A stretch of DNA of 19,100 nucleotides, taken from contig DASVDK010000214.1 in the NCBI GenBank assembly GCA_036381125.1, positions 1 through 19,100 of the forward strand. Direction: 5' to 3'. Source of the stretch: DASVDK01 sp036381125 [NCBI: Thermodesulfobacteriota bacterium] (GTDB lineage Bacteria; DASVDK01). Positions within the stretch are counted from its first letter, which is position 1. Every line of letters starts with the position of its first letter. Positions 1 to 14,024 of the stretch are shown here, piece by piece. A program made the position numbers and the translations under genes. The notes under the pieces are model-generated. The model did not search any database. It was not told where the DNA came from and worked only from the letters and a program-made list of their open reading frames with translations.

Positions 1-209
1 GCCCAGGCCTCGTCCCCGGCCGATCCCGGCCGCGCCGCCGAGACGAGCAGCAGCACGGCCAGGACGCCCATGGCCAGCGACAGCCAGAAGGGCAGGAAGC
101 CGGAGCCGGGCCCGGTCTCGCTCCAGTACGGGTACTGCCGCCCGGCGACCCCGAACCCGACGGCGAAGAGGAGGAGCAGGATGCCGCCGATCCGATCGGC
201 CCGGCTCAC
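1..209 (-). CDS. TctB-family membrane subunit of a tripartite tricarboxylate transporter (N-terminal part, runs off the window)
   Basis: A reading frame opens at a GTG (207-209) 12 bases after the stop of the TctC gene and stays open to the window edge, giving about 69 residues. It starts VSRADRIGGILLLLFAVGFG and shows a hydrophobic segment at about residues 8-22. A stretch resembling YWSETGPGSGFLPFWLSLAM follows, then a second hydrophobic segment at about 47-59. The GPGSGFLPFW-like motif after the first helix is typical of TctB, the small four-helix subunit of the TctABC uptake system in the inner membrane. Known family: TctB works with the large TctA permease and periplasmic TctC. Its place right behind a TctC gene on the same strand agrees. 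TctA would be expected just outside the window. The start codon is inferred from position and motif; no strong ribosome binding site is evident. Confidence 0.85.
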   Translation of the reverse strand, partial: MSRADRIGGILLLLFAVGFGVAGRQYPYWSETGPGSGFLPFWLSLAMGVLAVLLLVSAARPGSAGDEAW

Positions 210-221
210 GGCGGCCCGCCC

Positions 222-1196
222 CTACGGCTTGACCGCGCCCATGTCGATGAGCGCCTTGCGGTACTTCTCCCGGACCTGGTCGAGGTACGCGTTGGCCTCC
301 TCGCCGGTCATGAAGACGGGGGTGAGGAGGTTCCTCTTGATGTAGCCCTTCTGCCACCGTTCCGTCTCGCTGACCTTGCGCAGCGCGTTCTGCCACCACG
401 TGACCGCTTCCGGGCTCATGTCGGCCGGCCCGACCACGCCGCGCATCTGGTCCCAGAGGACGTCGTAGCCCAGCTCCTTGAAGGTCGGCACCTGGTTGGC
501 GTCCGGCATCCGCTTCTCGGCGGCGACCGCAAGGAACCTCGCCTTGCCCGCCTCGATCTGCGCCTGGACCTCGTTGGGGTTCTCGACCGCCGCGTCGATG
601 TGGCCGCCGAGGAGCGCGGCCGTGACCTCGCCGCCCGAGTTGAACGGCACGTACTTCACCTTGATCCCGGTCGCCTTCTCCATCAGGTAGGTGAAGATGT
701 GGTCCTCGGCGTTCGTGCTCGTGCCGCCGACGGAGAGGGTGTTCGGCTGCGACTTGGCCGCCTCGAGGAACTGCTGGATGGTCTGGTACTTCGAGTCGGA
801 GCGGACCGCGAGCGTCAGCTCGTCGACCGCGACGATCGCGAGGATCGTCATGCCGTCGCGGTGGTCGCCGGGGACCCGCCCCTCGATCTTGCCCGACACG
901 ATCGTCGGCGTGGCGCCGGCGATGACGTAGTCGTTCCCCTTCTTGCCGACGAGGTAGTTGTAGCCGACGGCGCCGCTGCCGCCGGCCCGGTTGACGACGT
1001 TGAGCGGCACGGGCGAGATCCGGTTCTCGTCCATGATGCCGGTGATGGTGCGCATCAGGTTGTCGGTGCCGCCGCCCGGCGCGTACGGGACGACGACCTC
1101 GATGGGGCGGGAGGGGTAGTCCGCGGCGGGGGCGTCCGTGACGGCGGCGAGGCCGAGAGCAGCGAGGGCGAGGGCGATGACGCGTGGCTTCGTCAT
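222..1196 (-). CDS. TctC/Bug-family periplasmic solute-binding protein of a tripartite tricarboxylate transporter
   Basis: This 324-residue protein has the usual length for the Bug family. Residues 1-25 form a signal peptide (basic start, hydrophobic core, APAA before DYPSRP). The DYPSRPIEVVVPYAPGGGTD motif (26-45) is the family hallmark, with the small-residue loop that contacts a ligand carboxylate. VVNRAGGSGAVGYNYL and a GGHIDAAVENP-like segment follow the family pattern. Known role: high-affinity capture of organic acids in the periplasm for a TctA/TctB permease; the ligand cannot be read from sequence. The ATG is preceded by a full-length Shine-Dalgarno match (GGAGGTGA, 7-base spacing, around 1204-1211), by far the best in the operon. 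That suggests high expression of the binding protein relative to its neighbours. It follows the CoA-transferase gene by 40 bases and precedes TctB by 12. Confidence 0.95.
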   Translation of the reverse strand: MTKPRVIALALAALGLAAVTDAPAADYPSRPIEVVVPYAPGGGTDNLMRTITGIMDENRISPVPLNVVNRAGGSGAVGYNYLVGKKGNDYVIAGATPTIVSGKIEGRVPGDHRDGMTILAIVAVDELTLAVRSDSKYQTIQQFLEAAKSQPNTLSVGGTSTNAEDHIFTYLMEKATGIKVKYVPFNSGGEVTAALLGGHIDAAVENPNEVQAQIEAGKARFLAVAAEKRMPDANQVPTFKELGYDVLWDQMRGVVGPADMSPEAVTWWQNALRKVSETERWQKGYIKRNLLTPVFMTGEEANAYLDQVREKYRKALIDMGAVKP

Positions 1197-1236
1197 GCGG
1201 GTGTCACCTCCGTTGGGGGGTCGTTCGACCGTGCGG

Positions 1237-2421
1237 TCAGGCGACGATGCCGGTGTCGAAGAGGTGCGCGCGCTCCGCCTTCCCGTAACCGAGTTCCTCC
1301 AGAATCGCGTCCGTGTGCTCCCCGAGCAGGGGCGCCGGCCGGTCGACCGCTCCCGGGGTCTCCGACAGCTTGACCGGCACCCCGAGCGCCTTGATCGGCC
1401 CGGCGCCGGGGTGGTCGAGGTCGACCACCATCCGGCGCGCGAGGGCGTGCGGGTCGCTCAACGCTTCGGGGTAGGTGTTGATGGGGCCCGAGGGCACCCC
1501 CTCCCGCTCGAGGCGGGCGAGCCAGTACGCCCGCGGCCGGGTCGCGGTCGTCTTCTCGACCTCGGCGACCAGCTCGGCCCGGTGCGCGAGCCGCTCCTTG
1601 CGGCCCCGGAACCGCGCGTCCTCGAGGAGGTCGGGCCGGCCGATGCCGCGGGCGAAGCCCTCGAACAGCCTGTCGTTGTTGGCCCCCACCGTGAAGTACC
1701 CGTCCTCGGCGCGCAGAGCCTGGTAGGGCGCCGACAGCCGGTGCGCCGAGCCGAGCGGTCCCGGCACGCGGCCGGTCAGCCAGTACTCCGCCGACTCCCA
1801 CACGGTCAGGGCCATGGCCGCCTCGAGCAGCGAGGTGTCGACGAACTGCCCCTCCCCGGTCCGCTCGCGGTACTCGAGCGCGCAGAGGACGCCGATGGCG
1901 CCGTAGAGGCCGGCGGCGAGGTCGCTGATGGGGATGCCCGCCTTGGCCGGCGGACCGTCCGGCTCGCCCGTGACGCTCATGATCCCGCTCATCCCCTGGG
2001 CGACGAGGTCGAAGCCGCCGCGCGCGGCGTACGGCCCGGTGGCACCGAATCCGCTGATGGCGCAGTAGACGAGACGGGGGTTCACGCGGCGCAGCGTCTC
2101 GTAGCCGACCCCCAGGCGGTCGACGACGCCGGGCCGGTAGTTCTGGACGAGCACGTCCGATCGCGCCGCGAGGCGGTGGAGGACCTCGACCCCCTCGGGT
2201 CGCTTGAGATCGACCGCGAGGCTGCGCTTGTTGCGGTTGACGGCCAGGAAGGCCCCGCTGTGCCCGTTGCGCTGCACGACGCCGGGCCTGCGGCCCTCCT
2301 CGCCGCCGGGCGGCTCGACCTTGACGACGTCGGCCCCCATGTCGGCGAGGTTCATCGTGCAGAACGGGCCGGCCATCGCCTGCGTGAGATCGACGACCCG
2401 GATGCCCTCGAGCGGCTTCAT
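1237..2421 (-). CDS. Family III (CaiB/BaiF, formyl-CoA-transferase type) CoA-transferase, copy 1
   Basis: This 394-residue protein has the normal length for the family. It opens with PLEGIRVVDLTQAMAGP, followed by GADVVKVEPPGG, FLAVNRNKRSLAVDLK, LVQNYRPG and the GGFDLVAQGMSGIMSVTG block. The catalytic Asp of family III, which forms the mixed anhydride with the substrate acid, aligns with Asp167 in the PISDLAAG motif. Known role: moving CoA from an acyl-CoA donor to a carboxylic acid in the cytoplasm. The specific acids are unknown. It is a close paralogue of the protein at 5272-6447; the two share long near-identical stretches. The ATG lies 6 bases after the stop of the upstream crotonase, so the two are probably translated together. 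TctC and TctB follow, which suggests that the transported acid is the CoA acceptor (inference). Confidence 0.95.
   Translation of the reverse strand: MKPLEGIRVVDLTQAMAGPFCTMNLADMGADVVKVEPPGGEEGRRPGVVQRNGHSGAFLAVNRNKRSLAVDLKRPEGVEVLHRLAARSDVLVQNYRPGVVDRLGVGYETLRRVNPRLVYCAISGFGATGPYAARGGFDLVAQGMSGIMSVTGEPDGPPAKAGIPISDLAAGLYGAIGVLCALEYRERTGEGQFVDTSLLEAAMALTVWESAEYWLTGRVPGPLGSAHRLSAPYQALRAEDGYFTVGANNDRLFEGFARGIGRPDLLEDARFRGRKERLAHRAELVAEVEKTTATRPRAYWLARLEREGVPSGPINTYPEALSDPHALARRMVVDLDHPGAGPIKALGVPVKLSETPGAVDRPAPLLGEHTDAILEELGYGKAERAHLFDTGIVA
1970..2024. repeat. Conserved DNA block shared with the second CoA-transferase gene (copy A)
   Basis: By direct comparison this 55-base stretch matches 6002-6056 in the same orientation with two mismatches. 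It encodes the segment around GFDLVAQGMSGIMSVT in both CoA-transferases. It shows that the two genes are duplicates with either strong constraint or sequence exchange here. Confidence 0.8.
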
Positions 2422-2427
2422 CGCGGT

Positions 2428-3189
2428 CTACTCCCCCGTGAATCGCGCCGGTCGCTTCTCGAAGAACGCGGCGAGCGCCTCCCGGTGGTCGCGCGTCGCC
2501 TGGAGGGCGGCGAAGCGCGCCCGCTCCCGCGCGAGGGCGCCGGCGAGCGGCTCCGGACCGGCCGCCTCCAGCATCGCGGCCTTGTTCGCCCGGACCGCGA
2601 GCGGCGCGCGCTCGGCGACCACGCGTGCCACGGCCGCCGACTCGGCGAGGAGGTCGACGTCCGGGACGACGCGGGAGACGAGGCCGAGCTCGAGCGCCTC
2701 GTCCGCCGGCACCGTTCGCCCGGTGAGCAGGAGGTCGCGGGCGACCGTCTCGCCGGCGAGCCGGGTCAGGCGGGCGGTCGAGGCGATGAGCCCGACCTTG
2801 ACGCCGACGCCGGCGAAGCGCGCCGATTCGCCCGCCACCCGGATGTCGCACGCCAGCGCCAGCTCGAAGCCTCCCCCGTACGCGTAGCCGCGCACCGCCG
2901 CGATCACGGCGCCCGGGTACCGCTCGATGCGCGAGAGGACCGCCTCGTCCGCCTCGAGGAAGGGCCGCACCGTCTCGCGCGTCAGCGTCTCCTCCTCCCG
3001 GAGGTCGGCGCCGGCCGAGAACGCCCGCTCCCCCGCCCCGGTGAGGACCACGGCTCGCACCCGTCTCGCCTCGCACTCGGCCAGGCCCGCGAGGAGCCCC
3101 GCCCGCACCGTGTCGGTGATGACGTTGAGCGGCGGGTTGTCGACGACGAGCGTGGCGACCGTCCCGTCGACCTCGACGCGGACCGTCAC
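2428..3189 (-). CDS. Enoyl-CoA hydratase/isomerase (crotonase) family protein, keeps one catalytic Glu
   Basis: This 253-residue protein has the usual crotonase length. The GTG start (3187-3189) gives MTVRVEVDGTVATLVVDNPP and lies 4 bases after the stop of the carbonic-anhydrase-like gene. The oxyanion-hole motifs are present: AFSAGADL (57-63) and GYAYGGGFELALACD (101-115). The first classical catalytic glutamate (rat mitochondrial hydratase Glu144) aligns with Glu109. The second (Glu164, normally in a PE motif) aligns with Gly129 in FAGVGVKVGL. The C-terminus EALAAFFEKRPARFTGE is intact. Known members with altered glutamates do isomerase, dehydratase, hydrolase or decarboxylase chemistry, so plain hydratase activity should not be assumed. 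The VTVR start and VGVKVGLIAS block make it a close paralogue of the protein at 3840-4562. Confidence 0.93.
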   Translation of the reverse strand: MTVRVEVDGTVATLVVDNPPLNVITDTVRAGLLAGLAECEARRVRAVVLTGAGERAFSAGADLREEETLTRETVRPFLEADEAVLSRIERYPGAVIAAVRGYAYGGGFELALACDIRVAGESARFAGVGVKVGLIASTARLTRLAGETVARDLLLTGRTVPADEALELGLVSRVVPDVDLLAESAAVARVVAERAPLAVRANKAAMLEAAGPEPLAGALARERARFAALQATRDHREALAAFFEKRPARFTGE

Positions 3190-3193
3190 GGCG

Positions 3194-3712
3194 CTAGCCC
3201 CCCGCCCCGCGGAAGTTCCGGTGCCACAGCTCGAGGTAGGAGGCGGCGTTGTGGCGGATGTCGGCCAGCTCCTCCTCGCTCATCTGCCGGATCGGTTTGG
3301 CCGGCACCCCCATGACGAGCCACCCGGCCGGCACGACCTTGCCGGGCGGCACCAGCGCCCCGGCCCCCACCTGGGCACCGCGCTCGACGACCGCGCCGTT
3401 GAGGACGACGGCGCCGATGCCGATGCGCGCGTCGTCGTGGACCGTCGCCCCGTGCACGACCGCGCCGTGGCCGATCGTGACGTTGTCCCCGATGATGCAC
3501 GGGTTGTGGGGCGTGACGTGGAGGACGGCCCCGTCCTGCACGTTCGAGTTCTTGCCGAGCCTGACGGGGCTCCCCTCGTCGCCGCGCAGGACCGCGCAGG
3601 GCCAGACGCTCGCCCCCGCCTCGATGGTCACGTCCCCGATCACCTGGGCCGCCGGGTCCACGTAGGCCTCGGGATCGACCTTCGGGGTCCAGCCCTGCAC
3701 GCTCCGGATCAT
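3194..3712 (-). CDS. Gamma-carbonic-anhydrase-like hexapeptide-repeat protein (PaaY/CaiE/YrdA type)
   Basis: This 172-residue left-handed beta-helix protein has repeating hexapeptides (for example VIGDVTIEAGASVWPCAVLRG, IIGDNVTIGHGAVVHG, IGIGAVVLNGAVV). The three zinc-binding histidines of the gamma class are visible as His65, His82 and His87. The C-terminal helix region (MSEEELADIRHNAASYLELW) fits the trimeric fold. The ATG at 3710-3712 has a GGAGG ribosome site 7 bases upstream. Family members include true carbonic anhydrases, PaaY (a thioesterase that relieves trapped CoA esters in phenylacetate breakdown) and CaiE of the carnitine operon. Being embedded among CoA-transferases and crotonases favours a PaaY/CaiE-like CoA-related role over general CO2 hydration; that is inference. 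Confidence 0.92.
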   Translation of the reverse strand: MIRSVQGWTPKVDPEAYVDPAAQVIGDVTIEAGASVWPCAVLRGDEGSPVRLGKNSNVQDGAVLHVTPHNPCIIGDNVTIGHGAVVHGATVHDDARIGIGAVVLNGAVVERGAQVGAGALVPPGKVVPAGWLVMGVPAKPIRQMSEEELADIRHNAASYLELWHRNFRGAGG

Positions 3713-3798
3713 CCGGCTGCCTCCCGCATCGCGCGCTCCTATCAACGGCTCGCGGCCGCCGTCCGCTCCGGCCGGGGCAAGCCCGCGCTCCGCTCCTC

Positions 3799-3817
3799 GG
3801 CGCGCCTGCGGCGCGCC
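3799..3817. repeat. Perfect 19-base inverted repeat in the 127-base gap between a crotonase gene and the carbonic-anhydrase-like gene
   Basis: GGCGCGCC occurs twice, separated by TGC, and each unit is itself palindromic. The transcript could form an 8-bp GC stem with a 3-base loop just after the crotonase stop at 3840. There is no T-run, so it is not a standard intrinsic terminator. It might stabilise or pause the polycistronic RNA. The gap (3713-3839) is the largest between the coding genes of the operon apart from its leader, and I see no gene in it. Chance is possible at this GC content. Confidence 0.35.
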
Positions 3818-3839
3818 AACCGCCCGGTGGCCGCTCGCC

Positions 3840-4562
3840 TCACGGCGCGGCTGCCGCCGCGCCTTCGCCAACGGCTCGGCGCTCCTGTGCCTCGGCCTCC
3901 TCGAGGGTCACGTCGAGCGCCCCGTTGATGAGCCGCTTCGTCGCGGCGACCGTGTCGGGGTCGAGCGCCGCCGCGCGAGCCGCCCACAGGCCGGCCTCGG
4001 CGAGGAGCCGCCCGGGCGGGACGACCGCCGACAGGAGCCCCATCCGGTACGCCTCGCCCGCGTCGAGCGTGCGGCCGGTGAGGAGCGCGTCGCGCGCCCG
4101 TCCCTCCGGGAGGAGCCGCCTGAGCTGCACGTTCGACGCGATGAGCCCCACCTTGACCCCGACCGCGCCGAGCCGGGCCGCGGTCGACCCGATCCGCACG
4201 TCGCACCAGAGGGCGAGCGTGAGCCCGCCGCCCATGGCCCAGCCGTTCACCGCGGCGATCACCGGCCCTGCGAAGGCGCGGATGGCGTCGCCGACCGCCT
4301 CGGCCCGCCGCTGGAAGTCGCCGACGGTCTCGGGGGCGAGGCCCGCCTCCTCGCGCAGGTCCGCCCCGCCGCAGAAGGCGCGCTCCCCGGCGCCGGTGAC
4401 GACGACCGCCCGCACCCGGTCGCGCTCGAAGTGCTCGAACGCCTCGAGGATCCCGCCGCGGAGCGCGTCGGTCAGGACGTTCATCGGCGGGTTGTCGAGC
4501 ACGACGTAACCGACCTCCCGCTCGATCCGCCAGCACGCCTCGCCGCCGCCGCGCACGGTCAC
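3840..4562 (-). CDS. Crotonase-family protein lacking both classical catalytic glutamates, short C-terminus
   Basis: This 240-residue protein starts at GTG 4560-4562, whose GTGA overlaps the upstream stop at 4559-4561; a second GTG lies two codons later. The fold markers are clear: YVVLDNPPMNVLTD, AFCGGADLREE (oxyanion motif) and NGWAMGGGLTLALWCD. Aligned with rat enoyl-CoA hydratase, Glu144 is replaced by Thr115 and Glu164 by Gly135 (in AVGVKVGL). The backbone oxyanion glycines remain, so CoA-thioester binding is plausible while hydratase chemistry is doubtful. The protein ends in EAEAQERRAVGEGAAAAAP, without the usual final helix (…AFLEKRPPxFxGR) that its paralogues keep. No other frame downstream restores that tail. 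It is a close paralogue of 2428-3189. The function is unknown; a changed specificity or a structural role are both possible. Confidence 0.88.
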   Translation of the reverse strand: MTVRGGGEACWRIEREVGYVVLDNPPMNVLTDALRGGILEAFEHFERDRVRAVVVTGAGERAFCGGADLREEAGLAPETVGDFQRRAEAVGDAIRAFAGPVIAAVNGWAMGGGLTLALWCDVRIGSTAARLGAVGVKVGLIASNVQLRRLLPEGRARDALLTGRTLDAGEAYRMGLLSAVVPPGRLLAEAGLWAARAAALDPDTVAATKRLINGALDVTLEEAEAQERRAVGEGAAAAAP

Positions 4563-5275
4563 TCGCCCCGGAAGACCGGCCGCGTCCCGGCGAAGAACGC
4601 CGCCACCGCCGCCTTGTGGTCGCGCGTCTCGACGAGCCGAGCGAAGAGGTCGTGCTCCATCGCCAGGGCCGCCGCCGGGCCGAGGTCGCGCGCCTGCCTC
4701 ACCGCCCGCCTGGCGGCGGCGACGGCGAGCGGCGCGCGCGAGGCGATGGTCCCGGCCGCGGCGCGCGCCTCCTCGAGGAGCGAGGCCGCCGGGACCACGC
4801 GCGAGACGAGGCCGACGCGGCGGGCATCGCGGGCGTCGAGCGTGCGGCCGGTGAGCGCGACGTCGCGGGCCCCCGCCTCGCCGAGCAGGTGCACGAGGCG
4901 GGCCACGCAGCGGGCCGGCGCGCCGTCGATCCCGGCGGCGGCGACGCGCGCCGTCTCGGCCGCGATGCGCACGTCGGTCTCGAGAACGGCCGCCAGGGCG
5001 GGCCCGCCCACGTGCCCGTCGAGCGCCGCCACGACCGGAAGCCGCCCCTCCCTGAAGCGGCGCCGCACCTCGTCGGCCACGGCGGCCCCCTCGCCGCCGG
5101 ACGGCCGGTCGCCCCACCCCGCGACGACGACCGCACGCACGCTCCGGTCGGCCTCGAGCGACGCGAGCGCGTCGGCCAGCGCGCGCAGCCACCGGTCCGC
5201 CGGCCCCGGCGCGCCGGCCAGCACGGCGACCGCTCCGTGCCGCGTCGCGGCGAGGTCCACGGCGGCCGCGCTCAC
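4559..5275 (-). CDS. Strongly divergent crotonase-like protein, probable pseudoenzyme
   Basis: This 238-residue protein starts at GTG 5273-5275, whose GTGA overlaps the upstream stop at 5272-5274. The second half is ordinary crotonase (ARDVALTGRTLDARDARRVGLVSRVVP, then EHDLFARLVETRDHKAAVAAFFAGTRPVFRGE). The catalytic half is eroded. The oxyanion SAGADL-type motif is replaced by PSGGEGAAV, and the GGGFEL motif reads HVGGPALAAV. The position of Glu144 is therefore Ala95, the oxyanion glycine is Pro92, and Glu164 aligns with Gly115. The alignment to the neighbour paralogues is ungapped through this region, and the frame is open with normal GC-rich codon use. It therefore looks like a maintained protein rather than a decaying gene. 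It might be a structural partner in a mixed crotonase trimer or hexamer (inference). It is very Ala- and Arg-rich. Confidence 0.85.
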   Translation of the reverse strand: MSAAAVDLAATRHGAVAVLAGAPGPADRWLRALADALASLEADRSVRAVVVAGWGDRPSGGEGAAVADEVRRRFREGRLPVVAALDGHVGGPALAAVLETDVRIAAETARVAAAGIDGAPARCVARLVHLLGEAGARDVALTGRTLDARDARRVGLVSRVVPAASLLEEARAAAGTIASRAPLAVAAARRAVRQARDLGPAAALAMEHDLFARLVETRDHKAAVAAFFAGTRPVFRGE

Positions 5276-6447
5276 ACGACCCCCCTGCGCCGAAGCTCGG
5301 CGATCTCGCCCGGGCCGTAGCCGATCTCCCGGAGCACCGCGTCGGTGTCCTCCCCGAGCCGCGGCGCCGCCTTGCGCACCGCGGCCGGAGACTTCTCGAG
5401 CTTGACCGGGTTGCCGAGCACCTTCACGCGCCCGGCCGTCGGGTGGTCGATCTCCTGGACCATCCCCCGCGCCTGCGCGTGCGGATCCGCCAGCGCCTCG
5501 GGCACGGTGTAGATCGGGCCGCACGGCACGCCCGCGCGCTCGAGCACCGCCATCCAGTGCGCACGCGGCCGGGTGACGGTGACCCGCTCGAGGATCTCGG
5601 CCAGCTCGTTGCGGTTGTCGTGGCGGTCGCCCGGCGCGGCGAAGCGAGGGTCGGTGATCAGCTCGGGCAGGCCGAGCGCCTCGGCGAGGCGGTGCCACAT
5701 CCGCTCGTTGGCGCCGCCGACGGTGAAGTAGCCGTCGGACGCGCGCAGCGCCTGGTAGGGCGCGTTCAGCCGGTGGGCCGTGCCGAGCCGCCTGGGGACG
5801 CGTCCCGTGAACCAGTACTCGGTCGCCTCCCAGACCGAGAGCGCCAGCCCCGCCTCGAAGAGCGAGGTGTCCACGAACTGCCCGCGGCCGGTGACCCGCC
5901 GCGCCCTGAGGGCGCAGAGGATGCCGAACGCGGCGAACAGCCCGGCGCCGAGGTCGGTCACCGGCACGCCCACCTTGACGGGCGGCCCGCCCTCGGCCCC
6001 GGTGACGCTCATGATCCCGCTCATGCCCTGCGCGACGAGGTCGAAGCCGCCGCGCGACGCGTAGGGCCCGGACTGCCCGAAGCCGGAGATGGAGCAGTAG
6101 ACGAGGCGCGGGTTGACCTCCCGGAGCCTCGCGTAGTCGACGCCGAGACGCGCCGCGACGCCGGGTCGGAAGTTCTCCACCGCGACGTCGGCCGTGGCGA
6201 TCAGGCGCGTGAAGACCGCGACCCCCTCCGGCTGCTTCAGGTCGAGCGTGATCCCCCGCTTGTTGCGGTTCACTGCGAGGAACGCCGACCTCGGGTCGAC
6301 GCCGAGCTGGCGGCGCGTGCTGTCGCCGTCCGGCGGCTCGACCTTGATGACCTCGGCCCCCATGTCGCCGAGGAGCTGACTGCACGAGGGGCCGGCCATG
6401 ACCTGGGTCTGGTCGACGACGCGGATCCCCTCGAGCGGCCCCGCCAT
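5272..6447 (-). CDS. Family III (CaiB/BaiF) CoA-transferase, copy 2
   Basis: This 391-residue protein has its ATG at 6445-6447, two bases after the stop of the upstream crotonase (TGA-CC-ATG), so it is translationally coupled. It shows PLEGIRVVDQTQVMAGP, MGAEVIKVEPPDGD, FLAVNRNKRGITLDLK, VENFRPGVAARLG and GGFDLVAQGMSGIMSVTG. The catalytic aspartate aligns with Asp165 in PVTDLGAG. The C-terminal part (GIYTVPEALADP-like region, LGEDTDAVLREIGY) is complete. It is a paralogue of the protein at 1237-2421. Two copies in one operon suggest two successive or alternative CoA acceptors, or a heterodimeric enzyme. In the carnitine pathway the homologue CaiB forms an interlocked homodimer and moves CoA between pathway intermediates. 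The substrate is not deducible. Confidence 0.95.
   Translation of the reverse strand: MAGPLEGIRVVDQTQVMAGPSCSQLLGDMGAEVIKVEPPDGDSTRRQLGVDPRSAFLAVNRNKRGITLDLKQPEGVAVFTRLIATADVAVENFRPGVAARLGVDYARLREVNPRLVYCSISGFGQSGPYASRGGFDLVAQGMSGIMSVTGAEGGPPVKVGVPVTDLGAGLFAAFGILCALRARRVTGRGQFVDTSLFEAGLALSVWEATEYWFTGRVPRRLGTAHRLNAPYQALRASDGYFTVGGANERMWHRLAEALGLPELITDPRFAAPGDRHDNRNELAEILERVTVTRPRAHWMAVLERAGVPCGPIYTVPEALADPHAQARGMVQEIDHPTAGRVKVLGNPVKLEKSPAAVRKAAPRLGEDTDAVLREIGYGPGEIAELRRRGVV
6002..6056. repeat. Conserved DNA block shared with the first CoA-transferase gene (copy B)
   Basis: This is the partner of the 55-base block at 1970-2024, with two mismatches and the same orientation. It marks the duplication of the CoA-transferase gene. 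Confidence 0.8.
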
Positions 6448-6449
6448 GG

Positions 6450-7241
6450 TCAGCGGCCCCGCCACTGCGGCCTGCGCTTCTCGAGGAACGCGCGCACGCC
6501 TTCCTTGAAGTCCTCGCTCAGATAGCAGGAGAGGATGATGTCCTCGGCGTCCTTCACCGTGAAGGCCTCGAGGAGCCGGCGGCCGTACTCCTTCACGCCG
6601 GCGAGCGTGAGGGGCGCGAGCGTCGCGATGTGCGCCGCGAGCTCGCGGACGCGCGACTCGAGCGCCTCGCCGGGGTGGACCTCGTCGACGAGCCCGATGG
6701 CCTTCGCCTCGGCCGCGTCGACCAGGCGGGCGGTCAGGAGGATCTCCCGCGCGCGCACCGGCCCGACGGTGGCCGCGAGGAGCGCGACCCCCGTGGGCGC
6801 GACGATGTTGCCGAGCGTCCGCGCGATGGGGATGCCGAAGCGGGCGTGGCTCGCCGCGATGCGCAGGTCGCACGCGATCGCCATGCCGAGCCCGCCGCCG
6901 ACCGCGTCCCCCTGCACCATGGCGATGGTCGGCTTCGTCATCGCCACGACCCGCCTGAGGACGCGGCTCACGCGCGCCTCGTAGGCGAGGGCGTGCTCCG
7001 CGGTGGTGAAGTCGAGGAACTGGCGGATGTCGGTGCCCGTCACGAACGCCTTCGTGCCGGCGCCGCGCAGGACCACCACGCGGACCTCCGGGTCGGCGTC
7101 GAACCGCTCGCACGCGTCGTGGAGCCCCTCGTACATCTCGAAGGTCATGGCGTTGCGGGCGTCGGGACGGTTGAAGGTGACGATGGCGGTCGGACCGTCT
7201 CGCTCGATGAGGAGGTCGCCGCCCGTTGCCGGCTGGCTCAT
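6450..7241 (-). CDS. Enoyl-CoA hydratase/isomerase (crotonase) family protein, first gene of the operon, noncanonical active site
   Basis: This 263-residue protein uses the ATG at 7239-7241, which has a GGGAG ribosome site about 10 bases upstream. A GTG at 7274 would add 11 residues but has no usable spacing and lies inside the operator palindrome, so I reject it. The crotonase markers are IVTFNRPDARNAMT (20-33), AFVTGTDI (65-72), GDAVGGGLGMAIACD (111-125), REILLTARLV and a complete tail VRAFLEKRRPQWRGR. Rat Glu144 aligns with Gly119 and Glu164 with Ile139 in the FGIPIARTLGN motif. I recall that motif as characteristic of a recognised crotonase subgroup (memory, not a search). It is less similar to the other three crotonases here than those are to one another. 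The reaction is unknown. Confidence 0.93.
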   Translation of the reverse strand: MSQPATGGDLLIERDGPTAIVTFNRPDARNAMTFEMYEGLHDACERFDADPEVRVVVLRGAGTKAFVTGTDIRQFLDFTTAEHALAYEARVSRVLRRVVAMTKPTIAMVQGDAVGGGLGMAIACDLRIAASHARFGIPIARTLGNIVAPTGVALLAATVGPVRAREILLTARLVDAAEAKAIGLVDEVHPGEALESRVRELAAHIATLAPLTLAGVKEYGRRLLEAFTVKDAEDIILSCYLSEDFKEGVRAFLEKRRPQWRGR

Positions 7242-7384: not shown

Positions 7385-8134
7385 CTAGAGCTGCTCCGGC
7401 TCGAGCGTCACCGTGCAGCGGTAGAGATCGGCCCGGTACTCGCCGCTCGAGACCAGCACGCCGCGTCCGCGCGCGTCGTGATACGTGCGAGCGATGTGGA
7501 GGATGGGGAACCCGAGCGGGACCCGCAGGAGCTTGGCGGCGGTCGCGCCCGCCACGTGCGCGCCGATCGACTGCTCGCACCGCCCCATCCGCACGCCGCA
7601 GAAGCGTTCGAGGAGCGACACGAGCGGCGCCCTGGCCAGCTCGGCCGTGGGGAGGTCGGCGTCGAAGGCCCCCGGGACGAACGACTCCAGGTACGCCAGG
7701 ACCCGGCCACGCACCGAGACGAGCCGCCGGAACATGGTCGCCTCGTCGCTGTCGCCGAGGCCGAGCGAGAGGCGCACCTCGGGCGGCGGCACGAGCCGGC
7801 GCCGCGACAGGAGGCGCACGCGCGAGTCGGGCTCGAACTGCATGAGGTCGACGAGCGAGCCGGTGAGCCGCGGGCTGTTCACGCGGGGCGCGGGCTGCAG
7901 GACGATCGTCCCCCTGCCCTGGTGGCGCGAGACGTGCCCTTCGTCGACGAGCATCTGGATCGCTCGGCGCATGGTCCCCACACTCACGTCGAACTCGCGC
8001 GCGAGGTCCTGTTCGGCGGGGAGGAGGTCGCCCGCCTTCCAGGTGGTCCCGAGGTGGTTCCGGAGGACGAGCGCGATCTGGTAGTAGAGTGGTGTCGGCG
8101 GGTGCGTCCAGTCCACCGTTGGCCGGACCGTCAT
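7385..8134 (-). CDS. GntR-family transcriptional regulator, HutC/FarR subgroup (wHTH + UTRA)
   Basis: This 249-residue protein has the usual length for the subgroup. The N-terminal winged helix-turn-helix spans about 14-80: PLYYQIALVLRNHL, GDLLPAEQDLAREFDVSVGTMRRAIQMLVDEG, HQGRGTIV. The UTRA effector-binding domain follows at about 90-245 and includes MFRRLVSVRG, YLESFVPG, AAKLLRVPLGFPILHIARTYHD and SSGEYRADLYRCTV. Family members usually repress nearby catabolic or uptake operons and are released by a small-molecule effector. The gene lies between the acyl-CoA/TctC operon (same strand) and the divergent export-pump genes. A tight terminator follows, and a predicted promoter sits 7 bases before the ATG. 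It most likely controls the acyl-CoA operon through the palindrome at 7268-7293; it might also act on the divergent intergenic palindrome. The effector is unknown. Confidence 0.93.
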   Translation of the reverse strand: MTVRPTVDWTHPPTPLYYQIALVLRNHLGTTWKAGDLLPAEQDLAREFDVSVGTMRRAIQMLVDEGHVSRHQGRGTIVLQPAPRVNSPRLTGSLVDLMQFEPDSRVRLLSRRRLVPPPEVRLSLGLGDSDEATMFRRLVSVRGRVLAYLESFVPGAFDADLPTAELARAPLVSLLERFCGVRMGRCEQSIGAHVAGATAAKLLRVPLGFPILHIARTYHDARGRGVLVSSGEYRADLYRCTVTLEPEQL

Positions 8135-8300: not shown

Positions 8301-9539
8301 GTGCCCGACACACCGACGAACGGCAGCCCTCGCGGCCCGGATCTCTCGGGCCTCAAGATCGACGAGCGCGCCAGGCGGCACCCGGCGCGCGTCGGCCCGC
8401 GCGCGATTGCCGTCGGGCTGGCGGTCCTCCTCGTCCTGTCCGCCGGCGCGTTCGCCCTGCTGCGGGAGGGCGCGCCGACTGTGAACGTCGTCACCGTGCG
8501 CGCGACCGCCGGAGGGGGCCGTCCGGCCCTGCTCAACGCGAGCGGGTACGTCACGCCTCGGCGGCGGGCCACGGTCGCGGCCAAGATCACCGCGCGGGTC
8601 AACGAGATCCTCGCCGAGGAGGGGATGCACGTCGAGGCCGGGCAGGTCCTGGCGAGGCTCGACGACTCGGACGCCCGGGCGCGGCTCCTCTCGGCCAGGG
8701 CCGATCGCGACGCGACGGCCGCGACGCTCGGCGAGCTGCGCGTGAACCTCGCCAACGCCGAGCGCGGGCTCGCGCGCATGGACGAGCTGTGGAAGGCGGG
8801 GTTCGTCGCCGAGCAGGCGCGCGACCAGGCGGCCACCGCCGTGGAGGCGCTGAAGGCGCGCATCGCGCTCGCCCGTGAGCAGGTCGACGCCGCCGAGGCG
8901 CGCGTCCGGGTCGCCGAGCAGGACCTCGACAACTGCACGGTGCGGGCCCCCTTCGGCGGCGTCGTCGTCTCGAAGGACGCCCAGCGCGGCGAGATGGTCT
9001 CGCCCGTCTCGGCCGGCGGCGGCTTCACGCGGACCGGGATCGCGACCATCGTCGACATGACGTCGCTCGAGATCGAGGTCGACGTGAACGAGTCGTACAT
9101 CGCCCGGGTCCGTCCCGGCCAGCCGGTCACGGCCGTCCTCGACGCCTACCCCGACTGGCAGATCCCGGCGACGGTCCGCACCGTGATCCCGACCGCGGAC
9201 CGGCAGAAGGCGACGGTGAAGGTCCGGGTGGCGTTCGACCGCTTGGACCCGCGCATCCTGCCGGACATGGGGGTGAAGGTCGCGTTCCTCGGCGAGGCGC
9301 CGAGCGCGCCGGCGGCGGCCGGCACGGTCCTGGTCCCGCGGGCCGCCCTGCGCGAGGAGGGCGAGACCGTCGCCGTGTTCGTCCACCGGGAGGGCCGGGT
9401 CGAGCGGCGCGCGGTGCGCCTCGGCGGGACGCGAGGCGACGAGCGCGAGGTGATCGCGGGGCTCTCCGACGGCGAGGAAGTCGTCGTCAGCGGCATCGAC
9501 ACGCTGCGCGACGGCCAGCAGGTACGGGTGAGACGGTAG
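8301..9539 (+). CDS. MacA/HlyD-type periplasmic adaptor of an ABC export pump
   Basis: This 412-residue protein has a GTG start at 8301; it is the first in-frame start that gives a short cytoplasmic tail before a membrane anchor. Domains: cytoplasmic tail 1-33, one transmembrane helix 34-53, first lipoyl half 85-122 ([43 protein letters not shown]), alpha-helical coiled-coil hairpin about 125-210, second lipoyl half 212-236 ([23 protein letters not shown]), then beta-barrel and membrane-proximal domains. Known role: linking an inner-membrane transporter to a TolC-like outer-membrane channel. The hairpin shows the vRAPFdGvV-type motif of the family. The ATPase gene follows after 8 bases. No outer-membrane channel is encoded in the window. 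The substrate is unknown. Confidence 0.93.
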
Positions 9540-9547
9540 GAGGCGCC

Positions 9548-10273
9548 ATGGCCAGGATCGACGGGCGGGGCGACGGCAGCAGCCTGATCCAGGCGCGCGG
9601 GCTCGGCAAGACGTACCGGCGCGGCGGCGAGGAGATCCACGTCCTCCAGGGGCTGAACCTCGACGTCGACCGCGGCGACTTCGTCGCGTTCATGGGGCCG
9701 AGCGGCTCGGGCAAGAGCACGCTGCTCAACCTCCTCGGCGGGCTCGACCTCCCCTCGGTCGGCAGCATCAGGGTGGACGGCGACGAGATCACGCGCATGT
9801 CGGCCCGCAAGCTGACGGCCTGGCGGGCGCGCCACGTGGGGTTCGTCTTCCAGATGTACAACCTGATCCCCGTGCTCACCGCCTTCCAGAACGTCGAGCT
9901 TCCGCTCCTGCTGACCGGGCTCTCGAAGCCCGAGCGCCGACGCCACGTGGAGACGGCGCTCGCGGTCGTCGGCCTCGCCGATCGCATGCACCACTACCCG
10001 CGACAGCTCTCGGGCGGGCAGGAGCAGCGGGTCGGCATCGCGCGCGCCATCGTGGCCGATCCGACCTTCCTGCTCTGCGACGAACCGACCGGCGACCTCG
10101 ATCGCAAGAGCGCCGACGAGATCCTCGACCTCCTCGACCGGCTCGTCCGGGAGCACGGCAAGACCGTGCTCATGGTCACCCACGACCCGCTGGCCGCGGA
10201 ACGGGCCCGGGTGGTCCTGCACCTGGAGAAGGGGGTTCTCGTGGAGGGCGCGACGGCGGGACGGGGCCGATGA
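9548..10273 (+). CDS. ABC transporter ATPase, MacB/LolD type
   Basis: This 241-residue protein has its ATG preceded by AGGAGG at good spacing (9539-9544). Visible motifs: Walker [10 protein letters not shown] (50-58), Q-loop VFQMYNL (100-106), signature LSGGQ (154-158), Walker B with catalytic Glu FLLCDEP (174-180), D-loop GDLD, and switch His212 in MVTHD. The [24 protein letters not shown] start and [17 protein letters not shown] are typical of the LolD/MacB/FtsE group, which power FtsX-type mechanotransmission pumps rather than classical membrane transport. The gene overlaps the next by ATGA, so the pump subunits are coupled. All catalytic residues are intact. Confidence 0.96.
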
Positions 10274-11412
10274 AGTACCGCCACCTGGTCCTCGCCAACC
10301 TGTTCCGCAAGAAGGTCCGGACCGTCCTGACCGTCGGCTCCTTCGCGGTCGCCCTCTTCCTGTTCGGCATCCTCGCGGTCGTCCACGGCGCGTTCCAGCA
10401 GGGGGTGGAGGTGGCCGGCGCCGACCGGCTCGTGGTCGTCAACCGGGTCTCGATCATCCAGCCGCTCCCCCTCGCCTACCGGGACCGGCTGGCCCGCATG
10501 CCCGGGATCACCGGCGTGACGTTCGCGAACTGGTTCGGCGGCGTCTACCAGGAGGAGCGCAACTTCTTCCCGCAGTTCGCCATCGACCCCGAGGGCTACC
10601 GGCAGATGTTCCCCGAGTTCGTCGTGCCCGACGACCAGTGGCAGGCGTTCCTGGGCGACAAGGAGGGGGCGATCGTCGGCGAGTCCCTGGCGGAGCGCTT
10701 CGGCTGGAAGGTAGGCGACCGCATCCCCATTCGGGGCACCATCTACCCCGGCACCTGGGAGTTCAACATCCGCGGCGTCTATCGGGGCCGGCGGGCGGAG
10801 GACGACACCACGCAGTTCTGGTTCCGCTGGGACTACCTGGACGAGCGGATCGACGCGGAGCAGAGGGGCCGCGTCGGCTGGTACACGGTCCGGATCGCCG
10901 ACCCCGACGACGCGGTGCGGATCGTCAAGGCGATCGACGAGGCGTTCGCCAACTCGCCCGCGGAGACCAGGACCGACACGGAGAAGGCCTTCGCGGCCTC
11001 CTGGGTCAAGCAGATGGGCAACATCCAGCTCCTGATCCTGAGCGTCGGCGGCGTGGTCTTCTTCACGCTCCTGCTCGTGACCGGCAACACGATGGCCATC
11101 GCCGTGCGCGAGCGGACGCGTGAGCTCGCGGTCCTCAAGGCGGTCGGCTTCTCCGACCGCTTCGTGCTCGCGCTGGTCATCGCGGAGACGATCGTCATCG
11201 CGGCGGTCGGCGGCGGCATCGGGCTCGGGCTCGCGAAGCTCTTCACCCTGGGGGGCGATCCCACCGGCGGCTTCCTCCCCTTCTTCTACCTGCCTCCCGA
11301 CGCGATGCTCCTCGGGTCGGCGGTCGCGGTCGCCGTGGGGCTCGCGGCGGGGATCCTGCCGGCGCTCTCCGCCGGCAGGCTGCGCGTCGTCGACGCGCTC
11401 AGGCGGGTCTGA
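10270..11412 (+). CDS. ABC transporter permease, FtsX/MacB type, subunit 1
   Basis: This 380-residue protein has an ATG that overlaps the ATPase stop (ATGA). The topology is that of a type VII ABC permease: helix 18-40, large periplasmic domain about 41-250, helices at about 252-275, 300-325 and 345-366. The [26 protein letters not shown] segment after the second helix is the FtsX-domain coupling region that contacts the ATPase. The periplasmic part is MacB_PCD-like ([25 protein letters not shown]). It differs clearly from the next gene product, so the pump is probably a heterodimer of two permeases. Confidence 0.92.
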
Positions 11413-11413
11413 C

Positions 11414-12583
11414 ATGGCCATTCCCCTGATCTACAACGTGCGGAGCCTCAAGGCGCGCTGGACCTCGTCGGTCGTGGCGGTGCTCGGCATCGCCGGGACG
11501 GTCGGCGTGTTCGTGGCCATGCTGTCGCTGGCGCGCGGCTTCGAGGCGGCGCTCGTGGCGTCGGGCTCCCCCCAGAACGCGATCGTCCGGCGGGCGGGCG
11601 CCACCTCCGAGCTGGACAGCAACATCGTGCTCGACCAGGTGCGGGTCATCGAGGACGCGCCCGGCGTCGCGCGCGCCGACGGCCGCCCCCTGGTGAGCCC
11701 CGAGGTCGTCGTCGTGGCCCCCTTCCCGCTCAAGGCCCGCGACACCGACGCGAACGTCTCGGTGCGCGGCGTCTCGCCCCTGGCGCTCTCGGTGCGGCCG
11801 GCGGTGAGGGTGGTCGACGGCCGGTTCTTCGAGCCCGGGCTGAACGAGCTGGTCATCGGCCGGAACGTGGCCGCCAGCTACGGCGGGCTGGAACTCGGCC
11901 GGACCGTCCGGTTCGGCGGCAGCGCCTGGACCGTCGTCGGCGTGTTCGACGCCGGCGGGAGCGCGTTCGACTCCGAGATCTGGTGCGACGCCGCCGTCCT
12001 CAAGCAGGCGTTCCAGCGCCCCCCCAACTTCTTCCAGTCGGTCACCGTCCGACTCGCCTCCCCCGAGGCCCTCACCCGGTTCAAGGATGCGCTCACCACC
12101 GACCCCCGTCTGTCCGTACAGGTCGACCGGGAGGTGGACTACTACGCGAAGCAGTCGCGGGCGCTCACGACCCTCATCACCGTCCTGGGGAGCATCGTGG
12201 CGCTGGTGATGGGCGTCGGCGCCGTCTTCGGGGCGCTCAACACCATGTACTCGGCCGTCGCCGAGCGCTCGCGCGAGATCGCCACCATGCGGGCGATCGG
12301 GTTCGGCAGCGGCAGCGTCGTGCTGTCCTTCGTGGCCGAGGCCCTCTGCATCGCGCTCGTCGGCGGGATCCTCGGCTGCCTCGCCGTCCTGCCGCTGAAC
12401 GGCCTCACGACCGGGACCATGAACTGGGCGACCTTCTCCCACCTCGCCTTCGCGTTCCGCATCACGCCCGTCCTGCTCCTCTGGGGGCTCCTGTTCGCGC
12501 TCCTCATGGGGCTCGTCGGCGGCCTGCCGCCGGCCGTTCGCGCGGCCCGCGCGCGGATCGCGGCGACCCTGCGGGAACTCTGA
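11414..12583 (+). CDS. ABC transporter permease, FtsX/MacB type, subunit 2
   Basis: This 389-residue protein starts at ATG 11414, one base after the previous stop. A frame opening upstream at 11120 would run antiparallel to nothing useful and overlap the previous permease, so I reject it. Helices lie at about 17-40, 252-276, 302-328 and 351-373. The periplasmic domain (about 41-250) has MacB_PCD features such as RVVDGRFFEPGLNELVIGRNVA and LGRTVRFGGSAWTVVGVFDAGGSAFDSEIW. The cytoplasmic coupling motif is ERSREIATMRAIGFGSGSVVLSF. It is the last gene of the adaptor-ATPase-permease-permease operon, and its stop is followed by IS debris without a clear terminator. It is a partner of the protein encoded at 10270-11412. 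Confidence 0.93.
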   Translation: MAIPLIYNVRSLKARWTSSVVAVLGIAGTVGVFVAMLSLARGFEAALVASGSPQNAIVRRAGATSELDSNIVLDQVRVIEDAPGVARADGRPLVSPEVVVVAPFPLKARDTDANVSVRGVSPLALSVRPAVRVVDGRFFEPGLNELVIGRNVAASYGGLELGRTVRFGGSAWTVVGVFDAGGSAFDSEIWCDAAVLKQAFQRPPNFFQSVTVRLASPEALTRFKDALTTDPRLSVQVDREVDYYAKQSRALTTLITVLGSIVALVMGVGAVFGALNTMYSAVAERSREIATMRAIGFGSGSVVLSFVAEALCIALVGGILGCLAVLPLNGLTTGTMNWATFSHLAFAFRITPVLLLWGLLFALLMGLVGGLPPAVRAARARIAATLREL

Positions 12584-12599: not shown

Positions 12600-12990
12600 A
12601 CGCGTGCTCGGGCCGCGCTGCTCGTCCTACCGTCGCTGGGCGGCCGTGTCGGCCGCGGCGTAATCGGCCAGCCGTCTGCATTTCACGTGGCCCCAGACGC
12701 GCTCGTCCGGGTTGAGCTCCGGCGCGTAGGCCGGCAGCGACACGGTTTCGATCGCCGGCTGCGTGGCCACGTAGCCGCGGGCGCCGCTGATGCCGGCGCA
12801 GCTTGCGCAGCACGGAGAAAGAGCAGCCGGGCCGGCGCCGGCGTCAAGCAGTGGGCGATGGCCGCCTCGTCGCGCTCGCGCGCCCGGCGCCCCGGCAGTG
12901 GCGCTGGAGCACGGTGGTGACCCGAGCCGCCGTCCACCGCCGCAACGCCGTCCGGTTGAGCCGCGACCGGCGGCCGAGCCCGGCACGGGG
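12600..12990 (-). pseudogene. IS630/Tc1-mariner-type transposase remnant
   Basis: Pieces of one transposase are scattered over the three minus frames. About 12895-12960 encodes LNRTALRRWTAARVTTVLQR (winged-helix-like N-terminal part). Next comes RARERDEAAIAHCLTP in a second frame. From about 12755 down to 12627, VATQPAIETVSLPAYAPELNPDERVWGHVK covers the C-terminal DDE_3 signature. An intact enzyme would need around 1 kb. Here the segment holding the catalytic aspartates is missing and at least two frameshifts are present, so it is dead. The fragments lie just behind the pump operon. No terminal inverted repeats or target duplication could be assigned. The whole 12584-13056 stretch holds nothing else I can support. 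Confidence 0.75.
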
Positions 12991-13056
12991 ATTCGGGAAC
13001 GCCGCTTTCTGTTCCTTTTTCCAGGCTGGAATCATTGGAACCGATTTCGCCCGCGC

Positions 13057-13085
13057 TTGAAGCGACATACAGCGTGGGATAGAGT
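13057..13085 (+). promoter_or_regulatory. Predicted promoter of the RibD-C/DHFR-fold gene, leaderless geometry
   Basis: TTGAAG (13057-13062), 17 bases, TAGAGT (13080-13085), then 7 bases to the ATG at 13093. Each hexamer matches 4 of 6 consensus bases. The start of transcription would fall at the ATG; there is no ribosome site between. This is the same spacing as at the regulator gene. Confidence 0.45.
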
Positions 13086-13092
13086 CAGCGCC

Positions 13093-13641
13093 ATGGGGCT
13101 CTTGACCTTCGCGCTCAACGTGACGCTGGACGGGTGTTACGACCACCGCGAAATGGTCGCCAACGACGAGATGCTCCGCTACTGGACACGCGTGATGGAC
13201 GCGGCGGGAGCGATGCTCTTCGGGCGCCGGACTTACGAGCTGATGGAGGAGGCCTGGCCCCAGGTGGCGCGAGACCCGAAGGCGAAACCGTCGGACCGGG
13301 ACTGGGCGAAGAAGCTCGAAGCCAAGCCCAAGTACGTGGTCTCGACTACGCGCCGCGACTTCCCGTGGAGCAACACGTATCACGTCGAAGGGAACCTGAC
13401 CCGGGCGGTGAAGGCGTTGAAGAAGGCCACGCCGCGCGGACTGCTGGTGGGTAGCCCCAAACTTTCGGCCGCGCTTCAGCGCCTGGACCTCGTGGACGAA
13501 TATCGCTTCGTGGTCCACCCCGTGGTGGCCGGGCACGGTCCGTTCTTGTTTTCCGGCCTGTGGCCATCATTGCGCCTGAAGTTCGTGACCGCGACACGGC
13601 TCAAATCGGGTATCGTGGCGTTGCACTATCGCCGGCGCTAG
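13093..13641 (+). CDS. RibD C-terminal / dihydrofolate-reductase-fold family protein
   Basis: This 182-residue protein starts at ATG 13093. The markers are FALNVTLDGCYDH (N-terminal strand and loop of the fold), RYWTRVMDAAGAMLFGRRTYELM (nucleotide-binding region) and KYVVSTTRRDFPWSNTYHVEGNL. GLLVGSPKLSAALQRLDLVDEYRFVVHPVVAGHG follows, carrying the glycine-rich NADPH-site segment and the family end. Known members are NAD(P)H-dependent reductases of largely unknown substrate (YyaP/YwjB-like), related to RibD's reductase domain. It is not a classical trimethoprim-target DHFR. Third codon positions include more A/T than in the metabolic genes around it. Dead insertion elements flank it on both sides, which suggests separate acquisition (inference). 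It is intact and has its own predicted promoter. Confidence 0.88.
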   Translation: MGLLTFALNVTLDGCYDHREMVANDEMLRYWTRVMDAAGAMLFGRRTYELMEEAWPQVARDPKAKPSDRDWAKKLEAKPKYVVSTTRRDFPWSNTYHVEGNLTRAVKALKKATPRGLLVGSPKLSAALQRLDLVDEYRFVVHPVVAGHGPFLFSGLWPSLRLKFVTATRLKSGIVALHYRRR

Positions 13642-13725
13642 CTGTGGGTGCTTGAGGAAGTTGTTCGATGGTGCATCGGCTCCTCCGCCGCCCGGCTGGC
13701 AGCCCTCGGCCCCTGGCTGCGGAAC

Positions 13726-13939: not shown

Positions 13940-14024
13940 CATGCGCGCTCATCGCGTTGCGCCAGGCCCTGTGACATTTTCGGGATCGGTTCCTGGTAAT
14001 CCTCCGACAGTGTCGTCTCCAGCC

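What the first reader, a model, noticed from the sequence alone, without database searches (positions are those of the whole stretch)
1..7241. Duplicated CaiB/CaiD/CaiE-like CoA operon fused to a TctABC uptake system
Seen: two family III CoA-transferases, four crotonases, one gamma-carbonic-anhydrase-fold protein, TctC and TctB on one strand, mostly overlapping or within 12 bases. Known: CaiB, CaiD and CaiE of the carnitine operon are the same three families. Here the CoA-activating ligase and acyl-CoA dehydrogenase are absent, and the transporter is of another type. Inference: an acid taken up by TctABC is put on CoA by transfer, not by ATP-dependent ligation, and is then processed by a set of specialised crotonases. 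The combination and the copy numbers look unusual.
Basis: partly seen in the sequence, partly recalled or inferred. Interest (0 to 1): 0.6.

Follow-up and report, generated by a model that had tools for sequence, protein, structure and literature searches.

The report
Acid-uptake CoA operon with truncated crotonases
A bacterium, probably of the little-studied phylum Methylomirabilota, carries a tight gene set that probably imports an organic acid, hangs it on coenzyme A and converts it; most of this is ordinary, but two of its four crotonase genes have lost opposite ends and are still kept by selection, which hints at an enzyme built from mismatched pieces.

Summary
Observation confirmed. On the minus strand lie four crotonase-family genes, two family III CoA-transferases (63% identical), a gamma-carbonic-anhydrase-type protein, TctC and the start of TctB; six of eight junctions overlap or lie within 12 bases.

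Uptake plus CoA transfer is plausible, but that combination is not unusual: crotonase, CoA-transferase and Tct genes also lie together in a Hyphomicrobiales MAG, Vreelandella, Geodermatophilus and Variovorax.

Unusual is the inner block CoAT_g-ECH3-ECH2-gCA-ECH1-CoAT_b. Of 95 Methylomirabilota genomes, two hold it whole, two with parts missing, one is cut by a contig end; 0 of 994 sampled genomes of four other phyla matched the ECH2 profile. ECH1, ECH2 and ECH3 form one clade. ECH2 lost its C-terminal end and both catalytic glutamates; ECH3 lost N-terminal sequence and the oxyanion loop but keeps the C-terminal end. Both look under purifying selection.

Best reading: an importer feeding a CoA-recycling transferase/crotonase pair (as CaiB/CaiD), with ECH1-ECH2-ECH3 one hetero-oligomeric crotonase. 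Substrate, cycling and assembly are not shown. It is not a carnitine operon. New variant of a known kind.

The parts
7385..8134 (-). GntR/UTRA-type regulator, 143 bases upstream of ECH4; likely local regulator (inferred from position)
   Evidence: Pfam GntR and UTRA; coordinates; gap
6450..7241 (-). ECH4: full-length crotonase, both canonical catalytic Glu positions replaced; clade that partners CoA-transferases in several phyla
   Evidence: Pfam ECH_1, NCBIfam PRK06144 343 bits, above its cut-off of 272, tree, residues
5272..6447 (-). CoAT_g: family III CoA-transferase, putative catalytic Asp present
   Evidence: Pfam, tree and Asp motif
4559..5275 (-). ECH3: crotonase paralogue with N-terminal part eroded and oxyanion GADL loop absent, C-terminal end kept
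   Evidence: Pfam profile covered 82-249 of 251; alignments; residues
3840..4562 (-). ECH2: crotonase paralogue lacking the C-terminal end and both catalytic Glu
   Evidence: Pfam profile covered 2-223 of 251; alignment; residues; lost tail not seen in any minus-strand frame there
3194..3712 (-). gCA: gamma-carbonic-anhydrase/CaiE/PaaY-like hexapeptide protein; three His at the expected positions
   Evidence: NCBIfam, alignment with 3 relatives
2428..3189 (-). ECH1: full-length crotonase with first catalytic Glu (E109) and oxyanion loop; Gly at the second Glu position
1237..2421 (-). CoAT_b: family III CoA-transferase, sister of CoAT_g, Asp present
222..1196 (-). TctC: solute-binding receptor of a tripartite tricarboxylate transporter
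   Evidence: Pfam; PDB relatives
1..209 (-). TctB: small membrane subunit, first 69 residues; runs off the window
   Evidence: Pfam

Best explanation
An uptake-and-conversion operon. A tripartite Tct importer brings in a small carboxylic acid. A family III CoA-transferase puts CoA on it by exchange with a CoA-ester already in the cell. A crotonase converts the acyl-CoA, and the CoA-transferase can pass CoA from product to the next substrate, so that no ligase or thioesterase is needed (a CoA-cycling pair like CaiB/CaiD). The hexapeptide protein is an accessory, as CaiE is thought to be. Inside the operon an older CoA-transferase + crotonase pair has become two transferases and three crotonases. 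ECH1 keeps one Glu and the oxyanion loop; ECH2 keeps the core without the C-terminal end; ECH3 keeps the C-terminal half without (or with an eroded) N-terminal part. The three most likely form one hetero-oligomeric crotonase in which ECH1 supplies most of the chemistry. Shown: gene content, order, losses, common clade, signs of purifying selection. Inferred: CoA cycling, complex formation, role of the hexapeptide protein. Unknown: substrate.
For: Pfam/NCBIfam assignments. Same block and order, whole in L104 and L105, with parts missing in L106 and L107, cut by a contig end in L144. ECH3-ECH2 junction -4 to +1 bases in the window and four relatives; ECH2-gCA -4 in the three relatives that have both. 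ECH1+ECH2+ECH3 form one clade (99/90) next to actinobacterial crotonases, those of L002 and L003 lying beside a CoA-transferase; CoAT_b and CoAT_g are sisters (99/95). Pfam coverage is complementary: ECH2 of L104 6-210 of 251, ECH3 of L104 83-250. dN/dS among the three closest relatives: ECH2 0.18-0.22, ECH3 0.22-0.27, ECH1 0.18-0.21. A crotonase-CoA-transferase-TctC-TctB-TctA row exists in L008. CoA cycling by CaiB with CaiD, and a possible activating role of CaiE, are reported in PMC2131755 (passages). Multi-chain crotonase-fold assemblies exist: PaaF-PaaG, and BoxC with one inactive crotonase domain (PMC4498308, passages); MdcD-MdcE (PMC5534430, passages).
Against: No direct evidence of a complex: AlphaFold gave a mediocre model of ECH2 (pLDDT 61.8) and a useless one of ECH3 (45.3); only single chains could be predicted. 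ECH3 varies in length among relatives (166, 195, 238 aa), which fits loose constraint as well as a structural role. ECH1 lacks one of the two Glu of a classical hydratase. In the five Methylomirabilota relatives read (7.7 to 19 kb) there is no TctC, TctB or GntR match and no whole ECH4, so the import link rests on the window and on other phyla. L106 has neither the b- nor the g-type transferase in its 19 kb and L107 has no gCA.
Confidence: 0.45

Rival explanations
1. A linear catabolic route: the CoA-transferase activates the acid once, separate crotonases carry out successive steps, and the product-CoA is finished by enzymes encoded elsewhere, as proposed for 3,3'-thiodipropionate breakdown in Variovorax paradoxus.
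For: V. paradoxus TBEA6 has a cluster with several crotonases together with mdo, act and acdA (that act is a CoA-transferase is recalled); two ech deletions abolish and one crotonase deletion weakens growth on thiodipropionate, so several crotonases in one cluster can each matter (PMC6370202, passages). In Advenella a family III acyl-CoA transferase gene lies near tctC genes (PMC5373536, passage). L002 has an acyl-CoA dehydrogenase and a Lyase_1 enzyme near its pair.
Against: ECH2 lacks both Glu and ECH3 lacks the oxyanion loop and N-terminal sequence, so separate steps by each are hard to picture; no dehydrogenase, thiolase or lyase was found in the operon.
Confidence: 0.3
2. ECH2 and ECH3 are decaying duplicates without function.
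For: Loss of catalytic residues and ends; variable ECH3 length; dN/dS of window against relatives 0.46-0.63 for ECH2 and ECH3.
Against: Open frames in the window and four relatives each, with the same C-terminal loss in ECH2 and the same C-terminal end in ECH3; conserved order with overlapping or near-touching junctions; dN/dS 0.18-0.27 in the closest trio; third-position GC 0.96-0.97 in the window.
Confidence: 0.1
3. A carnitine/crotonobetaine operon homologue with a different transporter.
For: Same three families as CaiB, CaiD and CaiE.
Against: CaiB equivalog 115 and 140 bits against a cut-off of 413; CaiE equivalog 121 against 305; no CaiA- or CaiC-type frame and no betaine-type transporter among the window frames searched.
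Confidence: 0.03

Closest known systems
caiTABCDE carnitine operon (CaiB/CaiD/CaiE)
   Same: Family III CoA-transferase, crotonase and hexapeptide protein in one operon with an uptake system; CoA cycling is a plausible shared logic
   Different: Cai equivalog models far below cut-off; no ligase or acyl-CoA dehydrogenase seen; Tct transporter; two transferases; four crotonases, two truncated
Crotonase + CoA-transferase + Tct clusters (L008 Hyphomicrobiales MAG with TctCBA; L017 Vreelandella with TctC and TctA; L150 Variovorax with TctC)
   Same: A crotonase beside a family III CoA-transferase with Tct genes near; ECH4-type in L008 and L017
   Different: One transferase and one crotonase in the row; no ECH1-gCA-ECH2-ECH3 block
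Thiodipropionate cluster of Variovorax paradoxus TBEA6 (PMC6370202)
   Same: Several crotonases in one cluster with act (CoA-transferase, recalled); TTT or TRAP uptake was hypothesised
   Different: Sulfur genes such as mdo; no truncated crotonases mentioned in the passages seen
Hetero-oligomeric crotonase-fold enzymes: PaaF-PaaG, MdcD-MdcE, BoxC (inactive second domain)
   Same: Crotonase-fold chains or domains assembled together, in BoxC one without an active centre
   Different: PaaF and PaaG are separate homotrimers stacked together; complementary loss of ends as in ECH2/ECH3 was not mentioned in the passages read

Membership tests
Carnitine (cai) operon | CaiB equivalog score at or above cut-off | tested here: not met
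   L-carnitine CoA-transferase model 115.4 and 140.4 bits, cut-off 413
Carnitine (cai) operon | CaiE equivalog score at or above cut-off | tested here: not met
   120.9 bits, cut-off 305
Carnitine (cai) operon | CaiA and CaiC present | tested here: not met
   no acyl-CoA dehydrogenase or ligase among the window frames given to Pfam; sequence beyond position 1 not seen
Family III CoA-transferases | CoA_transf_3 domain over the whole chain and the catalytic Asp | tested here: met
   E 2.9e-137 and 1.4e-136; Asp at the end of the expected motif in 9 of 9 b/g proteins (position recalled from formyl-CoA transferase)
Classical enoyl-CoA hydratase (two catalytic Glu) | Glu at both positions | tested here: not met
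   window residues at the two positions: ECH1 E/G, ECH2 T/G, ECH3 A/G, ECH4 G/I (Glu positions recalled, placed by alignment)
Crotonase superfamily | ECH_1 domain | tested here: met
   4 of 4 above the Pfam cut-off; ECH2 and ECH3 cover only parts of the profile
Tripartite tricarboxylate transporter | TctC, TctB and TctA | tested here: inconclusive
   TctC met, TctB met on a partial chain, TctA would lie beyond the window
Gamma carbonic anhydrase | Model cut-off and three metal-binding His | tested here: inconclusive
   160.6 bits, cut-off 250, not reached; His present in 4 of 4 aligned (their role is recalled)

The most novel reading that the evidence does not exclude
ECH2 and ECH3 together are a split crotonase: one chain gives the core and oxyanion loop, the other the C-terminal end, and with the one-Glu ECH1 they form an obligate three-gene hetero-oligomer, a crotonase architecture not known to me, fed by a duplicated (perhaps heterodimeric) CoA-transferase and running an unidentified CoA-cycling reaction in Methylomirabilota.
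Probability: 0.3. Interest if true: 0.65.

Novelty: new variant of a known kind. Interest (0 to 1): 0.45.

Why it matters
Crotonases commonly assemble as homotrimers of whole chains. A set of three sister chains, two cut at opposite ends and still under selection, would be a natural test of how this fold can be divided between subunits. The wider result, that a family III CoA-transferase, a crotonase (often without either classical glutamate) and a Tct importer lie together in several phyla, marks an uncharacterised route of acid uptake and conversion whose substrate could be screened in laboratory strains of Variovorax or Bradyrhizobium.

Tried and rejected
Own-genome search: no genome is held for the window. 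Carnitine operon membership: rejected on model scores. Frameshift as cause of the short ECH2: the lost tail motif is in none of the three minus-strand frames after its end, and the four relatives are short too. Pseudogene reading: weakened by dN/dS in the closest trio (Nei-Gojobori counting on GC-rich sequence, so values are rough). ECH4 as part of the Methylomirabilota block: rejected; in 20 of 20 ECH4-relative loci (of more listed places), with up to 1.5 kb on each side, no CoA-transferase or TctC match was found. Six larger regions were read: five are ECH4 regions, also without such a match; the sixth, L144, is the G091 copy of the block. Structure: the closest solved folds to the weak ECH2 model are ordinary crotonases; the ECH3 model was discarded. 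Substrate from neighbours: amidohydrolases, sugar-type ABC, TRAP or MFS transporters, a Lyase_1 enzyme and a luciferase-like enzyme do not point to one substrate; L153 had no annotation. Literature: searches (open PMC library; one search showed 15 of 121 papers, 10 of 12) showed, by title and start of abstract, no paper on this block or on truncated crotonase pairs. Only passages of PMC6370202, PMC4498308, PMC5534430, PMC2131755 and PMC5373536 were read. Rows dropped: L107 from the ECH3 counts (10 N in the gene), G091 from the ECH2 alignment (cut by the contig end), and all but the 45 best comparison transferases in the tree.
Full report
What is there. On the minus strand, from 7241 down to position 1, lie ECH4, CoAT_g, ECH3, ECH2, gCA, ECH1, CoAT_b, TctC and the first 69 residues of TctB (coordinates; families). 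Six of eight junctions overlap or lie within 12 bases. A GntR/UTRA regulator lies 143 bases upstream on the same strand. CoAT_b and CoAT_g are 63% identical; ECH1 is 52% identical to ECH2 and 44% to ECH3 over the BLAST alignments, and about 31% to ECH4.

Where the outer parts are found. Of these 80, 34 have a crotonase within 500 bases on the same strand (32 closest to ECH4, 2 to ECH1), 11 have TctC within 3 kb on the same strand, 7 have both, and 9 have a gCA relative within 6 kb on the same strand. Many loci are cut by contig ends, and two clusters with Tct genes further away (L017, L002) are not in the TctC counts. L008 reads crotonase, CoA-transferase, TctC, TctB, TctA. L017 has TctC, an untested 164-aa frame where TctB would be, TctA, then crotonase and CoA-transferase. 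L002 has TctC, TctA, an acyl-CoA dehydrogenase, a Lyase_1 enzyme, CoA-transferase, an ECH1-type crotonase and a luciferase-like enzyme. Variovorax L150 has crotonase, CoA-transferase and TctC; in Microvirga, Limimaricola and Paraburkholderia an ABC, TRAP or MFS transporter lies next to such a pair. So the outer parts are a recurrent module.

The inner block. In the phylum of G015 (the genome of L060, titled Candidatus Rokuibacteriota), 4 of 95 genomes match ECH1 at E <= 1e-48. L104 and L105 hold CoAT_b-ECH1-gCA-ECH2-ECH3-CoAT_g whole, in the window's order; L106 has neither of those transferases but a more distant one beside ECH3; L107 lacks gCA; L104 also has the distant transferase. With the ECH2 profile a fifth genome, G091, appears at a contig end (half of ECH2, E 8.9e-57), with CoAT_g and ECH3. 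The four whole ECH2 genes score E 1e-125 or better; the next matches are the ECH1 genes themselves (1e-54 to 1e-58) and then 3e-45. At 1e-48 the same profile matched 0 of 149, 0 of 151, 0 of 398 and 0 of 296 genomes of four other phyla, reached through an Acidobacteria, a Chloroflexi, a Zeimonas (Pseudomonadota) and a Geodermatophilus (Actinomycetota) locus. These are samples; only up to 19, 19, 7 and 10 candidates per genome were scored, and these calls held no positive control of their own (with the same profile does). The window's own placing in Methylomirabilota is inferred from 59-76% protein identity to these relatives for every block gene but ECH3 (48-51%).

What changed in the crotonases. 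ECH1 is full length, with the first Glu and the GADL loop in 5 of 5 and Gly at the second Glu position in 5 of 5. ECH2 lacks both Glu in 5 of 5; the four relatives end at 220-224 residues, and the window protein runs on to 240 without the usual end. ECH3 lacks the GADL loop in 5 of 5 (window, L104, L105, L106, L144): the three closest relatives start just before the first-Glu region and have 166 residues, L144 195, the window 238. L107 is not in these ECH3 counts because of a run of 10 N there. ECH3 keeps the first Glu in L104, L105 and L144 but not in L106 or the window. Pfam coverage shows the complement: L104 ECH2 6-210 of 251, L104 ECH3 83-250. ECH3 starts within 2 bases of the stop of CoAT_g, or overlaps it, in the window, L104, L105 and L144, which leaves little room for the missing N-terminal part. 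Comparison crotonases were chosen for matches of 190 residues or more, so that call is no test of how rare such truncation is.

Descent and selection. In a 99-row tree ECH1, ECH2 and ECH3 are each one clade (100) and together one clade (99/90), next to actinobacterial crotonases (L002, L003, L082: 243-251 residues from the start of the match, first Glu kept). The root is the midpoint, the order among the three is not resolved, and the tool warns of odd composition for the window ECH3 and L107 ECH1. In a 56-row tree CoAT_b and CoAT_g are sisters (99/95). So one pair probably became two transferases and three crotonases. dN/dS in the trio L104/L105/L106 is 0.18-0.22 for ECH2 and 0.22-0.27 for ECH3, near ECH1 (0.18-0.21) and above gCA (0.08-0.13); comparisons with the window give 0.42-0.63 for the crotonases. 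In the trio at least, the truncated genes are kept.

ECH4. It sits in a different clade, together with crotonases beside CoA-transferases of several phyla; it and the 23 other rows of its 24-row subclade lack both Glu. Relatives are common in Methylomirabilota (61 of 95 genomes at E <= 1e-50), but 20 of 20 loci looked at had no CoA-transferase or TctC match within the up to 1.5 kb held on each side. Its place in this operon thus resembles an arrangement of other phyla.

How it probably works. Established: in the carnitine system CaiD works with the transferase CaiB, which cycles CoA between product and substrate, and early overproduction work suggested that CaiE activates them (PMC2131755, passages). 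A two-enzyme loop of this type needs no ligase, dehydrogenase or thioesterase, which fits gene sets made of transferase, crotonase and importer. This is inference; a linear route as proposed for thiodipropionate breakdown (PMC6370202, passages) is the main rival. For ECH1-3, common descent, conserved order, overlapping or near-touching junctions, complementary losses and purifying selection point to subunits of one assembly. Precedents of joined crotonase-fold chains are PaaF-PaaG, BoxC (PMC4498308, passages) and MdcD-MdcE (PMC5534430, passages). No complex was shown; the AlphaFold models were too weak to help.

Verdict. Observation confirmed. The outer module is recurrent; the inner block is a new variant of a known kind with an open mechanistic question.

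Noticed in passing
window 8301-12583, + strand: Divergent MacA/MacB-like set: HlyD-type adaptor, ABC ATPase and two FtsX/MacB-type permeases, facing away from the operon.
   Followed up: no
window 14852-19061, - strand: Class III aminotransferase, alanine dehydrogenase and an IlvD/Edd-type dehydratase in a row; a separate amino-acid or sugar-acid gene set.
   Followed up: no
window 12790-13999, + strand: RibD_C reductase-like frame followed by a frame matching an IS4/5-type transposase domain, DUF4096, in a stretch of lower GC (0.645 at 13001-14000).
   Followed up: no
L104 10859-12028 and L106 9840-11009: A third, distant family III CoA-transferase (about 41% to CoAT_g) beside the block in two Methylomirabilota genomes; my pattern for the catalytic Asp motif of the b/g type did not match it.
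   Followed up: partly
ECH4-type crotonases in L001, L006, L008-L011, L017, L019, L022, L025, L026, L028, L029, L031, L033, L034, L036, L040, L041: A clade from four phyla of crotonases beside CoA-transferases, most with a PIA(R/K)T(L/I)GN motif and none with either classical catalytic Glu. The NCBIfam model that the window ECH4 meets is named enoyl-CoA hydratase, but the real reaction may be another.
   Followed up: partly
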